NCBI GenBank assembly: GCA_019116525.1
Contig: DXBM01000059.1
Location: 1-50,569, forward strand
Direction of reading: 5' to 3'
Source of the DNA: Candidatus Olsenella pullistercoris
GTDB taxonomy: Bacteria; Actinomycetota; Coriobacteriia; Coriobacteriales; Atopobiaceae
Length of the DNA: 50,569 nucleotides
The notes beneath the pieces were generated by a model, which worked only from the letters and a program-made list of their open reading frames with translations, did no database searches and had not been told where the DNA came from. A program made the translations under genes and the position numbers. Positions 1-40,818 of the stretch are shown piece by piece; the stretch's first letter is position 1, and every line of letters begins with the position of its first letter.

Positions 1-225
1 GCCGCCTGGCCCGAGTTCGACGAGGCCGCGGCAAAGGCGGACGAGGTCGAGATCGCGGTCCAGATCAAGGGGAAGGTCCGCGGCCGCGTGACGGTCTCCG
101 CCGATGCCTCCGACGACGAGATGGCCGAGGCTGCCAAGGCGGCCGTTGCCGAGCAGCTCGCCGGTAAGGAGATCAAGAAGGTCGTCGTCATCAAGGGACG
201 CCTCGTCAACATCGTCGCGGTCTAG
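1..225 (+). CDS. leuS: Leucyl-tRNA synthetase, C-terminal fragment
   Basis: Only the last 74 codons are present; the gene begins upstream of the window and ends at TAG 223-225. The visible residues are the C-terminal domain of LeuRS. They include the VQIKGKVRGRVTV strand followed by a helix and the closing KKVVVIKGRLVNIVAV segment, which matches the family's usual ending. LeuRS charges tRNA-Leu in the cytoplasm. The C-terminal domain contacts the tRNA elbow. The fragment is too short to comment on catalytic residues. A 109-bp twin-hairpin repeat begins 24 nt after the stop codon. Confidence 0.85.
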   Translation, partial: AAWPEFDEAAAKADEVEIAVQIKGKVRGRVTVSADASDDEMAEAAKAAVAEQLAGKEIKKVVVIKGRLVNIVAV

Positions 226-249: not shown

Positions 250-358
250 CCCTCCCAAACCGACGGAACCGAGCCTGTTTCGTCGGTTTGAGCGGCATTA
301 AGCAAGCTGAACCCTCCCAAACCCACGGATCGGGCCTGTTTCCGTGGGTTTGGGAGGG
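250..358. repeat. 109-bp twin-hairpin repeat element, copy 1
   Basis: The element opens with CCCTCCCAAACC and closes with its reverse complement GGTTTGGGAGGG, so it has terminal inverted repeats. Inside are two stem-loops. Hairpin A pairs 256-265 with 281-290, and hairpin B is an 18-bp perfect stem pairing 312-329 with 341-358. They are joined by the linker AGCGGCATTAAGC at 291-303. A second copy of identical length lies at 12337-12445. There is no T-tract after hairpin B, so it is not a textbook intrinsic terminator. The flanks TTGT and ACAA extend the inverted repeat slightly. The function is unknown; a REP/MITE-like mobile element or a structured RNA is possible. Confidence 0.8.
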
Positions 359-7372: not shown

Positions 7373-8481
7373 TGGGCGAGAAGGACCTCAGCTCGCGCCT
7401 TCTCGCGCTCTCGCCAGAGCGCCCGATCGCGCCGGGCGCCGCGCGCGCCCTCGTGCGGGGCGCCCTGCTCGCGGCTCCGTCGGGGGCCGCGGGAGGCGTT
7501 CCTCCGAGAAGTGCGCTGCGCGGAACTTCTCTGCGGAGTGCCTCCCGCGACCTGCGGTCGGTTTGTGCGATTGGGGCGTTCGACGGGGTGCACGAGGGGC
7601 ATCGGGCGCTTCTCGCCCGGGCGCGCGCTGAGGCCGAGGCGCGAGGGGACGAGCTCGTCGTGGTGACGTTCTCTCCTGACCCGTCGCGCGTCCTCACTCC
7701 GGTTGACCCGCAGCCGCAGCTCCTCTCCTGCGAGGACCGGCTTCGCGCGCTCGCGATCGCCCCCGGCGTGGATCGGCTCGTCACGATTCCCTTCACCCCC
7801 GAGCTCGCCGCGCTGCCCTATGAGCGGTTCGTGCGAGAGGAGCTCGGCTCGCGCATGGCGCTCGACTGCGTCGTCGTGGGCGAGGACTTCTGCCTCGGCG
7901 CGGGAGGGGCCGGGACCGTGGGGGCCCTTCGCGAGCTCGGGCGCGTCGACGGGTTCTCCGTCATCGGCGTCGCGCTCGCCGACGCGGGGGGCGCCCCCGT
8001 CACCGCCACGCGCGTGCGCGACCTTCTCGGAAGCGGGAGCATTGAGGACGCCGCGGAGCTCCTCGGCCGTTGCCACTTTGTCTCGGGCAGGGTCGTGCAC
8101 GGCCGCGGGGAGGGGACGGGGTTCGGCTTCCCCACCGCGAACGTCGAAGTCCGCGAGGGGCTCTGCCTCCCGGCAGAGGGCGTCTACGCGGGCTACGTCG
8201 TCGCCTCTGGCACCGCGTGGCCCGCCGCCATCAACGTCGGCAGGCCGCGGTCCTTCTCGCCGGGCGAGGAGGGCGAGGCGTTCCTCGAGGCGACCCTGCT
8301 TGGCTTCTCCGGCGACCTGTACGGCGCCGAGGTCTCTGTCGTCTTTGTGCGGTGGCTGCGCGCCCCGAGGACCTTCTCGTCTGTGTCCGAGCTCGAGCGA
8401 GTCGTCCTGGGCAACGTCTCCTGGGTCCGCGAGGCGCTGGGAGAGGACGGCATTGACCTTGGGCGGGAGGTGGTCGCGTGA
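7372..8481 (+). CDS. ribF: Bifunctional riboflavin kinase/FAD synthetase RibF
   Basis: RibF phosphorylates riboflavin to FMN and adenylylates FMN to FAD. The FAD-synthetase domain begins only near residue 64 (VCAIGAFDGVHEGH). It contains VVVTFSPDPSRVL and VVGEDFCLG. The riboflavin-kinase domain has GRGEGTGFGFPTANV and a C-terminal helical end. At 369 residues it is about 50-60 longer than usual. The N-terminal extension is unlike the family and contains a large hairpin at 7488-7549. ATG 7372 overlaps the truB stop by one base. A later start such as GTG 7453 cannot be excluded. Confidence 0.9.
   Translation: MGEKDLSSRLLALSPERPIAPGAARALVRGALLAAPSGAAGGVPPRSALRGTSLRSASRDLRSVCAIGAFDGVHEGHRALLARARAEAEARGDELVVVTFSPDPSRVLTPVDPQPQLLSCEDRLRALAIAPGVDRLVTIPFTPELAALPYERFVREELGSRMALDCVVVGEDFCLGAGGAGTVGALRELGRVDGFSVIGVALADAGGAPVTATRVRDLLGSGSIEDAAELLGRCHFVSGRVVHGRGEGTGFGFPTANVEVREGLCLPAEGVYAGYVVASGTAWPAAINVGRPRSFSPGEEGEAFLEATLLGFSGDLYGAEVSVVFVRWLRAPRTFSSVSELERVVLGNVSWVREALGEDGIDLGREVVA
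7488..7549. repeat. Large imperfect palindrome inside the 5' part of ribF
   Basis: CGCGGGAGGC at 7488-7497 pairs perfectly with GCCTCCCGCG at 7540-7549. Inside, CTCC pairs with GGAG, and GAGAAGT (7506-7512) pairs with ACTTCTC (7525-7531). The hairpin lies in the non-conserved N-terminal extension of RibF and leaves the reading frame open. It looks like a REP-type palindrome inserted in frame, or a terminator-like stem in a region that is not really coding. Confidence 0.6.
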
Positions 8482-10403
8482 TCTCGGACGAGGACAAGGA
8501 GCGCGTGAGGCAGGCAACCGACTTCGTGCAGCTTGTTGCCGAGACCGTCGAGCTCAGGCAGCGTGGCCAGGAGTTCTGGGGCTGCTGCCCGTTCCACGGC
8601 GAGAAGACCCCGTCGTTCAAGGTGAACCCCGCGACCGGGCTCTGGCACTGCTTCGGCTGCGGGGACGGCGGGGACGTCTTCTCGTACGTGCAGCGCCGGG
8701 AGGGCCTGGAGTTTCTCGACGCGGTTCGCTACCTCGCCGACCGCGCGGGCATAGAGCTCCACGAGGAGCGCGGCGCCTCGCGCGGCCCCAAGAAGACGCG
8801 CCTCATGGAGGCCCTCGGCGAGGCGGAGTCCTACTTTCACACCATGCTCATGCGCGGCAAGGGGCCGGGGCCTGACTCCGCGCGCCGCTACCTTGCCGGC
8901 AGGGGATTTGGCTCCGACGTCTGCAGGCGCTGGGGGCTTGGCTTTGCCCCGGGCCGCGGCTCGCTCGTGTCGCTTCTCCGCGAGAAGGGCTTCTCGCCTG
9001 CCGAGCTCGTGGCGGCCGACCTTGCGCAGGACCGCTCGGGCAGGCTCGTCGACCGCTTCTACGACCGCGTGATGTTCCCCATCCACGACGAGATGGGGCG
9101 CACGATCGCCTTTGGCGGGCGCATCCTCGAGAAGCGCGACAACGTGGCCAAGTACCTCAACACCCGTGACACCGCCGCCTTCAACAAGGGCAAGCACCTC
9201 TATGCGTACGACCGCGCCAAGGAGGCGATGGCGGCGACCGGGGAGGCCATCGTCTGCGAGGGCTACACCGACGTCATCGCCATGCACGAGGCCGGCTTCA
9301 CCAACACCGTGGCGGCCCTGGGGACGGCGTTTCGCCTCGATCACGTGCGGCTCATGGAGCGTCAGCGCGTGAGTAGGATCGTCTGCCTGTTCGACGGCGA
9401 CGCTGCGGGGCAGCGCGCGGCTGAGCGCGCGGTCCGCTACCTCGACCAGACCTCGGCTGCGCTGCTGTGCGTGGTGCTCCCGGACAACCTGGACCCGATG
9501 GAGTTCCTCTCGGAGCGCGGGGCGGACGCCCTGCGCGCCGTGCTTGATGGCGCGAGGCCGCTCATGGAGTTCGTCTTTGAGAAGCGCCTCTCCGCGCATG
9601 ACCTCTCGGCGCCCGGTCGCCGCGTTCGCGCGCTGCAGGACATGGCGTCGCTGCTCGCTCCGCTCAAGAGGAGCGTCCTTCTCGACGAGTACGCCACGCG
9701 CCTCGCTGACATCCTCGGCATGGACGTCGAGCAGACCAAGCGGGCCATCTGCGACGCGCCCGTGAGGGACCTTGACGAGGCGGCGCCCGCGACTGCCGCC
9801 CGGGCACGACGCGCGAGCGTGCCGGAGCGCGGCGAGGAGCACTCCTCGGCCGACTACGCCCCCGCTCCGGACGACTACCTTCCGCTCGAGGCGACCGATG
9901 CCGCACCCGCCCCTGCCGCCGGGGCGCCGCTTGCGGCGCTCTCGTCCGACGAGCGCATGCAGGTCGCCGCTGAGCGCGAGCTGCTGAGCGCCATCGCGAC
10001 GCGACCGGACGAGATGCGGGGCTACGGTGAGCGCATCGCCTCCCTCAACTGGTGCGACGAGCGGCACGAGGCGATGGCGTGGGCCATGCTCTCCACCCCC
10101 GACGGAAGCGCCCCGTCCGACGTCGTCGCTGCCGCCACGGCGGTCGTGCCTGAGGCGCCGCGGCTGCTCTCGGGCGGGCGCGTGATGGGGGAGAGCGAGC
10201 TCAGCGAGCAGAAGCGCCTCGATCTCATCGTCGACACCGCAGAGCTCCTCTCGTCGAGGCGCCGCATCCGACAGATCCGCGCGCGCCTCAAGGGGTCGCT
10301 TCCTGATGAGGCGAGCGCCGAGGCGCTGTTTGCCGAGGCCACCGCCCTTCAGCGGCGCGCCGCGGAGCTCTCCCGGGCGCTCTCCTCTGTTTCCAGCGAG
10401 TAG
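8478..10403 (+). CDS. dnaG: DNA primase DnaG
   Basis: DnaG makes RNA primers for replication. The 641-residue protein has an N-terminal CHC2-type zinc finger (CCPFHGEKTPSF, then HCFGCG; residues about 35-65). A RNA polymerase/TOPRIM core follows, with VCEGYTDVIAMHEAG near residue 258 and LFDGDAAGQRA near 303. The C-terminal third is a helicase-binding region with a low-complexity Ala/Pro linker at about 435-490. Start GTG 8478 overlaps the ribF stop (GTGA). The neighbour rpoD completes the actinobacterial-style dnaG-rpoD pair. Confidence 0.95.
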   Translation: MISDEDKERVRQATDFVQLVAETVELRQRGQEFWGCCPFHGEKTPSFKVNPATGLWHCFGCGDGGDVFSYVQRREGLEFLDAVRYLADRAGIELHEERGASRGPKKTRLMEALGEAESYFHTMLMRGKGPGPDSARRYLAGRGFGSDVCRRWGLGFAPGRGSLVSLLREKGFSPAELVAADLAQDRSGRLVDRFYDRVMFPIHDEMGRTIAFGGRILEKRDNVAKYLNTRDTAAFNKGKHLYAYDRAKEAMAATGEAIVCEGYTDVIAMHEAGFTNTVAALGTAFRLDHVRLMERQRVSRIVCLFDGDAAGQRAAERAVRYLDQTSAALLCVVLPDNLDPMEFLSERGADALRAVLDGARPLMEFVFEKRLSAHDLSAPGRRVRALQDMASLLAPLKRSVLLDEYATRLADILGMDVEQTKRAICDAPVRDLDEAAPATAARARRASVPERGEEHSSADYAPAPDDYLPLEATDAAPAPAAGAPLAALSSDERMQVAAERELLSAIATRPDEMRGYGERIASLNWCDERHEAMAWAMLSTPDGSAPSDVVAAATAVVPEAPRLLSGGRVMGESELSEQKRLDLIVDTAELLSSRRRIRQIRARLKGSLPDEASAEALFAEATALQRRAAELSRALSSVSSE

Positions 10404-12336: not shown

Positions 12337-12445
12337 CCCTCCCAAACCTACGGAATCGCCTCTGTAACGCAGGTTTAAGCGGCATTAAGCTACCTGAACC
12401 CTCCCAAACCTACGCTTTTCTCTCAGGAGTGTAGGTTTGGGAGGG
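12337..12445. repeat. 109-bp twin-hairpin repeat element, copy 2
   Basis: This is the same architecture and length as the copy at 250-358. Terminal CCCTCCCAAACC and GGTTTGGGAGGG are present. Hairpin A pairs 12344-12352 with 12368-12376, with one A-C mismatch. The linker AAGCGGCATTAAGC is at 12377-12390. Hairpin B has a 15-bp stem, 12399-12413 with 12431-12445. In hairpin B a C-G pair of copy 1 becomes T-A here, and in hairpin A a G-C pair becomes T-A, so base pairing is kept. Loops differ freely. Function unknown. Confidence 0.8.
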
Positions 12446-12491: not shown

Positions 12492-12531
12492 GGTAAAAGA
12501 AACGGGCCGCCGAGAAATTCTCGGCGGCCCG
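12492..12531 (-). terminator. Intrinsic terminator of tRNA-Asn
   Basis: Positions 12503-12516 and 12518-12531 form a perfect 14-bp stem with a one-base centre. On the - strand the stem is followed by a T-rich run (TTTCTTTTACC). It lies 10 nt beyond the CCA end of the tRNA gene, so it should terminate that transcript. Confidence 0.85.
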
Positions 12532-12540
12532 CGTGCTCTC

Positions 12541-20381: not shown

Positions 20382-20417
20382 GAGGCGCCCGCCCGGAGAC
20401 CTCCGGACGGGCGCCTC
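20382..20417 (+). terminator. Stem-loop terminator-like structure after the PTS operon
   Basis: GAGGCGCCCGCCCGGA (20382-20397) pairs with TCCGGACGGGCGCCTC (20402-20417) with one mismatch and a 4-nt loop. No T-tract follows, so it may act as an mRNA 3' end stabiliser or a weak terminator. Confidence 0.55.
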
Positions 20418-38490: not shown

Positions 38491-39570
38491 ATGGCTTCTA
38501 TGAACGACAAGGACTACTACTCGATTCTCGGCGTCGAGAAGGACGCCACGACCGAGCAGATTCGCAAGGCCTTCCAGCAGAAGGCGCGCAAGCTCCACCC
38601 CGACGTGAACAAGGCGCCCGACGCCGAGGAGCGCTTCAAGGAGGTCTCGGAGGCCTACGCGGTCCTCTCGGACCCCGACAAGCGCAAGCGCTATGAGGCC
38701 ATGCGCTCCGGCAACCCCTTTGCCGGCGGCCCCACCGGCCCGCAGGGTGGCGGCTACGCCGACCCGTTCGGCGGGAGCCCGTTCGGATGGGGGCCCTTTG
38801 GGGGAGCGACCTCGAGGCGCCGCTCGCGCGCCTACAACCCGCGCGCAGGCGCCGACGTCATCTACGACCTCACCGTCGACGCCGCGACCGCCTCGAAGGG
38901 GACGCGCAGGGGCGTAACCTACCAGCGTTACGTCTCCTGCTCGGTCTGTCACGGCTCCGGCTCCGTCCGCTCAGAGCACTCCGAGACGTGTCCCACGTGC
39001 GGCGGGCGCGGCAGCATCACCGTTGACACCGGCCTCTTTGGCGTGATGGTGATGACCTGCCCCGAGTGCGAGGGCACCGGGCGCGTCGTGGCCGACCCCT
39101 GCTCTGCATGCGGCGGCACCGGGCGCACCCTCTCGGCGAGCGAGGTCGTGGTCGACGTCCCCGCCGGTGCGCACGACGGCCAGGAGGTTCGCGTCTCCGG
39201 AATGGGCAACGCGGGCACGAACGGCTCCTCCGCGGGCGACTTCGTGTGCCGCGTCTGCGTCCCCGAGGAGCGGCTCACCCGCTCCCAGGCGACTGGGTTC
39301 AACCTCATCGGCTTCGCCCTGCCGTTCGTGGTCTTTGGGCTTGCGACCTCGACGATCGCCTCCTTCGCGCTCATCATTGGCGTTCTGGTCATCATGGGCG
39401 CCTTTCTCGTGATCAGGGACGGCATCAAGCTGCGGGGGCGCTGGTGGCGCAACGCGGGAATCGCGATCGCCAACGGGGCCTCGAACGGGCTCATGGTCGC
39501 GTTCTTCCTCGTGATGATGTTCTCTTGCGCCGCGCGGGGCATGTTCTATTCGCCGTTTCTGTTCTTTTAG
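38491..39570 (+). CDS. Membrane-anchored DnaJ-like protein (J domain, zinc centre, C-terminal transmembrane helices)
   Basis: The 359-residue protein has an intact J domain (about 6-72, HPD at 36-38), able in principle to stimulate DnaK. A Gly/Phe-rich linker (74-105) comes next. The cysteine-rich centre is full, with four CxxC repeats: C150/C153, C167/C170, C190/C193 and C204/C207. Only a short part of the following beta domain remains. The rest of the substrate-binding C-terminus is replaced by about three hydrophobic helices (271-291, 292-309, 323-345). This would tether the J domain to the membrane. It lies 27 nt before the canonical dnaJ and is clearly a diverged paralogue. Confidence 0.85.
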   Translation: MASMNDKDYYSILGVEKDATTEQIRKAFQQKARKLHPDVNKAPDAEERFKEVSEAYAVLSDPDKRKRYEAMRSGNPFAGGPTGPQGGGYADPFGGSPFGWGPFGGATSRRRSRAYNPRAGADVIYDLTVDAATASKGTRRGVTYQRYVSCSVCHGSGSVRSEHSETCPTCGGRGSITVDTGLFGVMVMTCPECEGTGRVVADPCSACGGTGRTLSASEVVVDVPAGAHDGQEVRVSGMGNAGTNGSSAGDFVCRVCVPEERLTRSQATGFNLIGFALPFVVFGLATSTIASFALIIGVLVIMGAFLVIRDGIKLRGRWWRNAGIAIANGASNGLMVAFFLVMMFSCAARGMFYSPFLFF

Positions 39571-39597: not shown

Positions 39598-40818
39598 GTG
39601 GAACCAAAGAGGGACTACTACGAGGTGCTCGATGTGCCTCGCGATGCTGACGAGAAGACCATCAAGCGCGCGTTTCTCAAGAAGGCGCGCAAGCTCCACC
39701 CAGACGTGAACGACGCCCCTGACGCCGAGGAGCGCTTCAAAGAGGTGAACGAGGCGTACACCGTCCTTTCCGACGAGCAGAAGCGCGCCAACTACGACCG
39801 CTACGGCGACCCGAACGGGCCGGCGGGCTTCGGCTCTGACTACGTTGACGTCTCCGACATCTTCGGAGGGGGCGGCTTTGGCTTTGGGGACATCTTCGAC
39901 TCCTTCTTCGGTGGCATGGGCGGCCGCTCCGGGTCCTCCTCGCAGCGCACGCGCGGCCGCGACATGGGGATACGGCTGACCATCACCCTGGAGGAAGCCG
40001 CGGCGGGCTGCAAGAAGACCGTCGCGTACACGCGCCTCGCGCCCTGCGAGGACTGTGGGGGCACGGGCGCGGCCGAGGGCGGGAAGATGCACACGTGCGA
40101 CCGCTGTCACGGCACGGGCCGCGTCGTCGAGGTGCAGCGGACCATTTTCGGCCAGATGCAGACGCAGACGAGCTGCCCGGTCTGCCACGGCCAGGGCCAG
40201 GTCATCGATCACCCGTGCGAGACGTGCGAGGGACAGGGCCGCGCCCCGTCCAGGGAGCGCGTGGAGGTGCAGGTCCCCGCGGGCGTCCACTCCGGGCAGA
40301 CCCTCACGGTGGAGGGCAAGGGCGAGGCGGGCCTGCGCGGCGACGCCAGCGGCAACCTCGTCGTGAGCGTCGAGGTCGCTGACAGCGACCGCTTCGAGCG
40401 CCAGGGCGACGACCTCTACTGCACCGTCCAGGTTGACTCCCTGCAGGCCATCGTCGGCACCACCGTGACCATTGATGGCATCATGGAGGGCGAGCGCGTG
40501 ACCGTCGAGGTTCCCGCGGGGTGCCAGTTCGGCCAGCGCGTCGTGGTCTCGGGCCGCGGCATGCCGCGCATGGGCATGATCGCTCGCGGCAACCTCGTTG
40601 CCGTCGTTCACGTTGAGACCCCGTCCGACCTCACCAAGCAGCAGCTCCTCGACGTTGCCGCGCTTGTCGCGGCGCGCTCGCTCGACGCCGCTCCCGCGCC
40701 CGAGGCACCCGCCGAGGAGCGCGAGGGCTTCTCGGCGGCGGCAGAGAACGTTGCCGAGCACTTTGCCAAGGAGCGCTGGCACGCGCCCAAGAACCCCTTC
40801 AAGGGCGGTCGCCGGTGA
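39598..40818 (+). CDS. dnaJ: Chaperone protein DnaJ
   Basis: DnaJ is the DnaK co-chaperone. The 406-residue protein has the J domain (HPD near residue 36), a Gly/Phe-rich region and four zinc-binding CxxCxGxG-type repeats (about 142-215). Both C-terminal beta domains are intact, with [20 protein letters not shown] and [21 protein letters not shown] 40-residue acidic/Ala-rich tail precedes a basic end. GTG 39598 follows GGAGATAGAGG. It overlaps mtaB (GTGA). dnaK and grpE are not in the window. Confidence 0.94.

What the first reader, a model, noticed from the sequence alone, without database searches (positions are those of the whole stretch)
250..358. A 109-bp twin-hairpin element present twice with covarying stems
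Copies at 250-358 and 12337-12445 have the same length, the same terminal inverted repeats CCCTCCCAAACC/GGTTTGGGAGGG, the same internal linker GCGGCATTAAGC and two stem-loops each. At the position after AAACC the paired bases are G-C and C-G in copy 1 (hairpins A and B) and T-A in both hairpins of copy 2. Pairing is therefore preserved while sequence changes, which points to selection on structure or on a palindrome recognised by a protein. Both sit just downstream of essential genes on the + strand. No T-tract follows, so simple termination does not explain them.
Basis: seen in the sequence. Interest (0 to 1): 0.75.

Follow-up and report, generated by a model that had tools for sequence, protein, structure and literature searches.

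The report
Palindromic repeats paired with a nuclease
The 109-base double hairpin is one of at least 18 scattered copies in this gut bacterium's genome, and the same repeat brackets a gene for an unnamed DNA-binding nuclease; relatives of that gene in other bacteria are often bracketed by repeats of their own, many of them palindromes, which looks like a repeat-spreading system built on an unexpected enzyme.

Summary
The repeat is real: 18 full-length 109-bp copies in this genome, 14 of them 22-47 bp past a called stop codon, and 18 strong copies in three congeners.

No RAYT is linked to it. None of this genome's four RAYT loci carries the element, and a 99%-complete congener has the element but no Y1 transposase. 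Instead, an inverted pair brackets one gene in three species. Its ~343-aa protein has no Pfam or NCBIfam match; it is modelled as an AbiEi-like DNA-binding half plus a PD-(D/E)XK-like half.

Relatives of the gene tend to be bracketed by their own repeats: 53 of 79 loci against 6 of 142 controls; in same-genome tests 35 of 50 loci match themselves, 3 of 74 paralogue pairs match. Such palindromes are dispersed genome-wide.

Best reading: a REP/RAYT-like system with a different enzyme. Linkage is shown; binding, cutting and mobilisation are inferred. Against: one congener with seven copies lacks the gene.

The parts
250..296 (+). copy 1, hairpin A (arms 250-265 and 281-296, 15-base loop; mismatches near the foot)
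297..311 (+). copy 1, 15-base linker ATTAAGC-NNNN-TGAA (TTAAG and TG invariant in 32 of 32 copies)
312..358 (+). copy 1, hairpin B (16-bp arms CCCTCCCAAACCCACG / CGTGGGTTTGGGAGGG)
12337..12383 (+). copy 2, hairpin A (imperfect; absent from the minimum-energy fold)
12384..12398 (+). copy 2, linker
12399..12445 (+). copy 2, hairpin B; its loop reads closer to the reverse complement of the common loop (14 against 10 of 21 letters)
1..225 (+). end of leuS, the gene that copy 1 follows (context only)

Best explanation
The element is a dispersed, non-coding twin palindrome. Its partner, elsewhere in the genome (G000 contig C4, 7772-8806, bracketed by copies at 7639-7747 and 9027-9135), encodes an AbiEi-like DNA-binding domain joined to a PD-(D/E)XK-like nuclease domain. 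Proposed working: the AbiEi-like half reads the palindrome arms, as AbiEi reads inverted repeats; the nuclease half nicks or cuts at the palindrome, perhaps when extruded as a hairpin; repair or replication then copies the unit elsewhere, leaving tens of copies, mostly behind genes where they do little harm. The gene itself stays put and is inherited vertically, and each lineage's protein goes with its own palindrome. Shown: copy number, bracketing, gene-specificity, dispersal, vertical inheritance, conserved nuclease-like residues. Inferred: that this protein binds these palindromes, that it cuts, and that it spreads or maintains them.
Confidence: 0.6

Rival explanations
1. Operator sites: the protein is an AbiEi-type autoregulator, the bracketing palindromes are its operators, and the scattered copies are a regulon or decoys spread by something else.
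For: AbiEi antitoxins bind inverted repeats in their own promoters (PMC7319586, passages); AbiEi-like fold.
Against: Repeats lie on both sides of the gene. Scattered own copies sit behind genes rather than before them: 15 of 18 have a gene's 3' end facing them. Does not explain the conserved nuclease-like residues.
Confidence: 0.15
2. Self-marking or defence: the nuclease acts on DNA and the palindromes mark, protect or titrate.
For: Nuclease-like domain; AbiE systems are phage-defence systems (PMC3985639, abstract start in the listing).
Against: No toxin partner among 10 neighbours scanned at 9 loci; does not explain gene-specific dispersal. No homologue in phages, one in plasmids.
Confidence: 0.1
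3. RAYT-spread REP doublets (REPINs) whose RAYT has been lost or lies in the missing part of this draft.
For: Two-hairpin layout of about 100 bp resembles REPINs (PMC3116915, abstract); RAYTs are common in the genus, 28 of 31 genomes; the draft is 81.5% complete.
Against: The element twin is at none of the four own RAYT loci. G020 has copies and no Y1_Tnp. The element does bracket another gene.
Confidence: 0.05
4. Transcription terminators or mRNA 3'-end stabilisers that happen to resemble each other.
For: 14 of 18 own copies lie 22-47 bp behind a called stop codon; strong hairpin.
Against: Exact 109-bp length and shared linker in 18 of 18 own copies; T-rich follow-up in 5 of 18 only (reading).
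Confidence: 0.06

Closest known systems
REP/BIME and REPIN repeats with RAYT (TnpA-REP) transposases
   Same: Dispersed short palindromes, twin units of about 100 bp, one chromosomal partner gene bracketed by its own repeats.
   Different: The partner is not a Y1/HUH transposase: no Y1_Tnp match in 30 members at E <= 1; modelled as AbiEi-like plus PD-(D/E)XK-like.
CGTC-tagged REPs (Di Nocera 2013, PMC3733652, passages seen)
   Same: Palindromic repeat families for which that paper found no dedicated transposase.
   Different: 8-9 bp stems and CGTC tag there; about 16-20 bp stems here; hosts listed in the passages I saw are not Coriobacteriia.
AbiEi antitoxins of type IV toxin-antitoxin systems
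   Same: AbiEi-like fold over residues 4-201; inverted-repeat binding known for AbiEi.
   Different: Extra nuclease-like domain; no AbiEii toxin among the neighbours scanned; repeats scattered over the genome.
Vsr-like homing endonuclease I-Bth0305I
   Different: Free-standing gene between genes, with an AbiEi-like half and cognate dispersed palindromes.

Membership tests
REP/RAYT (REPtron) | partner is a Y1/HUH tyrosine transposase | tested here: not met
   No Y1_Tnp among Pfam matches of 30 members at E <= 1; G020 has elements but no Y1_Tnp.
REP/RAYT (REPtron) | partner gene bracketed by its own repeats | tested here: met
   53 of 79 loci against 6 of 142 controls; not seen in 26 of 79.
REP/RAYT (REPtron) | palindromes dispersed between genes in many copies | tested here: met
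   own copies overlap a called ORF in 3 of 18.
REP/RAYT (REPtron) | GTAG or CGTC tag at the foot of the hairpin | not tested
   Not scored.
REP/RAYT (REPtron) | repeats mobilised by the partner | not testable with these tools
   Needs strain series or an assay.
AbiE type IV toxin-antitoxin | AbiEi fold | tested here: met
AbiE type IV toxin-antitoxin | adjacent AbiEii nucleotidyltransferase toxin gene | tested here: not met
   0 of 10 neighbours at 9 loci (one ABC transporter has a sub-cut-off PF13304 hit); nearest called gene 138 bp or more away on the sides where one was called, 16 loci.
PD-(D/E)XK / Vsr-like nuclease | catalytic fold and acidic/lysine residues | tested here: met
intrinsic terminator | hairpin followed by a T run | tested here: not met
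   5 of 18 own copies have four or more T in the next eight bases (my reading).

The most novel reading that the evidence does not exclude
A second, HUH-independent kind of repeat-and-partner system exists in Actinomycetota: AbiEi-PD-(D/E)XK fusion proteins, each with its own palindrome that it reads, cuts and disseminates, inherited vertically while protein and palindrome change together. Outside Coriobacteriia 10 of 16 distant homologues also share a repeat between their flanks, against 1 of 240 cross-locus pairs (two of the ten, L321 and L323, do not look palindromic to me).
Probability: 0.5. Interest if true: 0.92.

Novelty: categorically new. Interest (0 to 1): 0.84.

Why it matters
REP-like palindromes without a known transposase are a standing puzzle (Di Nocera 2013, passages). 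A protein family of another fold that is tied gene by gene to its own palindromes would show that such repeats arose more than once. It also gives many natural protein-palindrome pairs, several in one genome, from which the recognition code of AbiEi-like domains could be read and tested.

Tried and rejected
RAYT as partner: rejected. Known RNA family: Rfam finds only a tRNA in the window. Covariation as evidence of RNA structure: slight; clear only in the Eggerthella-group palindromes, where 97.1% of cells pair and 25 cells change on both sides against 6.8 shuffled, 0 of 500 as high (sequences counted, not events). Clean empty site for copy 1: in none of the 29 relatives with a strong rimP match does an element hit fall between leuS and rimP, but those intergenic regions are too divergent to show the junction. 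Complementary flanks as a target signature: not seen for the 18 own copies; for 22 Eggerthella-group copies only the first two flanking positions. Shared sites: 3 of 18 own copies share a site with one of the 14 relative copies compared, out of 18 strong ones. Loop inversion as a rule: hairpin B nearly always one way, hairpin A mixed; left open. A bracketed gene can be chance: in G014 an inverted pair brackets what reads like a pantothenate kinase gene. Literature: searches listed no paper linking an AbiEi or PD-(D/E)XK protein to dispersed cognate palindromes; these are listings of an open-access library only.

First alignment had two rows in the wrong orientation and was replaced.

Full report
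What was checked. Copy 1 as query finds 18 distinct places in its own genome. Thirty-two copies (18 own, 14 from three congeners) were aligned: 31 fit 109 bp and one 110 by the end-finding script (one further row, L031, starts one base in). The model built from them finds 18 full-length copies in this draft genome (1.88 Mb, 81.5% complete) at 95-117 bits, and nothing else above 22 bits other than the same places read on the other strand. Over 31 genomes of the genus the places over 75 bits number 18 in G000, 7 in G014, 6 in G020 and 5 in G013; weaker, related two-hairpin elements with other stems appear elsewhere, 14 of 31 genomes having any match at E <= 0.01.

The structure claim. Hairpin A of copy 2 does not form in the minimum-energy fold. 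Own copies overlap no called ORF in 15 of 18 cases, and 15 of 18 have a gene's 3' end facing them, 14 within 22-47 bp (ORFs called by a simple composition rule).

Not a RAYT system. Four Y1 transposases exist in the genome. Three have hairpins of their own around them; the flanks of the fourth, L027, share a repeat by my reading; none has a CCCTCCCAAACC twin. Two of the proteins were scanned against NCBIfam and hit its REP-associated transposase model at 70.6 and 63 bits, under its cut-off of 80. Congener G020 (99% complete) has six strong copies but no Y1_Tnp match.

A general association. Homologues occur in 101 of 200 relatives. Comparing the left with the right 500-bp flank, 20 of 30 loci share a repeat of 40 bits or more, against 2 of 106 sliding controls and 22 of 25 RAYT loci. 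In 80 named loci, of which 79 had long enough flanks, 53 of 79 do, against 6 of 142 windows from the same loci away from the gene; the top control matches read like coding repeats. The two sets overlap and their members are related, so the Fisher p of 2e-24 is nominal. Of the 53 repeats 31 contain a stem of 12 or more, against 3 of 213 control segments. Different loci rarely share repeats: 80 of 6162 cross-locus pairs reach 40 bits, and among paralogues of one genome 3 of 74, where 35 of 50 loci match themselves. The repeat therefore belongs to the gene, not to the genome at large.

Dispersal. TTGTCGCCCGAAANNNNCGG, taken from palindromes beside two Eggerthella-group genes, has 36, 21, 13 and 13 sites in four such genomes and none in four genomes of the window's genus; the reversed pattern has none. 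CGTGCGGGTTCCGGACG occurs 48, 34 and 17 times in G008, G010 and G020, at most 4 times in the other 28 genomes, reversed control at most 1 per genome, often at 61-bp steps. In the Eggerthella-group set the inner stem changes with its partner.

Vertical gene, changing palindrome. One neighbour gene lies beside 13 of 30 loci at 83% identity or more, yet the palindromes there fall into several unrelated kinds: CCCTCCCAAACC, CTCGC..AAGTCACG, TACGCG..CCAACG and others. A second paralogue lies beside an Atg22-like transporter gene at four loci (L174, L176, L178, L195), with palindromes that resemble but do not equal each other. This is how RAYTs behave too (recalled, not tested here).

Further afield. 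A profile search of 296 genomes of the phylum finds 29 with homologues, 16 of them outside the 13 of the window's order. Of the best locus in each of those 16, 10 share a repeat between flanks; 1 of 240 cross pairs does. L324 carries a 62-bp palindrome-like repeat at 98% identity on both sides. Phage records hold no homologue and plasmid records one, in a 900-kb Collinsella record.

Mechanism. Shown: linkage, specificity, dispersal, fixed gene position, kept nuclease-like residues. From print: AbiEi and Rv2827c bind inverted repeats in their promoters and each failed to bind the other's (PMC7319586, passages). Inferred: this protein binds its own palindromes, its second domain nicks or cuts them, and repair spreads or maintains them. 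Main contrary facts: G014 has seven strong copies but no homologue by two searches; 26 of 79 loci lack shared flanks; one of two further paralogues in the own genome has no hairpin within 700 bp, the other is bracketed by AGCTCCCGGACG palindromes; no insertion event was caught.

Verdict. I rate it categorically new because the one known kind that it works like, REP/RAYT, fails its defining test; a cautious reader may prefer 'new variant' until binding and cutting are measured.

Noticed in passing
L026, L027, L028, L029 (own genome C55, C18, C11, C12): Four RAYT-like Y1 transposase genes, each with different repeats around it (for example ATGATACGAAGGGACTGTCCCTTCGTATCAT at L028).
   Followed up: partly
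window, 51 places: GCGAGAA/TTCTCGC occurs 51 times, second among 139 seven-letter words of its composition, and recurs in loops of otherwise unrelated palindromes; 1.55 per kb near the nuclease genes against 0.84 farther off.
   Followed up: partly
L014, just after the element: A GCCCCACTTGTACC..GGTACAAGTGGGGC palindrome, the kind found around the RAYT of L029, lies close behind a 109-bp element.
   Followed up: no
G008 and G010: Palindromes in tandem rows with an exact 61-bp step.
   Followed up: no
L112 (G014 C23:154512-155631): An inverted pair of elements brackets a gene that reads like type III pantothenate kinase: bracketing can be chance.
   Followed up: no
window 38579-38685 and 39680-39786: 107-base direct repeat, 81% identical.
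   Followed up: no
window 12500-12534 and 20382-20417: Near-perfect short hairpins outside the element family; the first lies between copy 2 and a tRNA on the minus strand.
   Followed up: no
   Followed up: no
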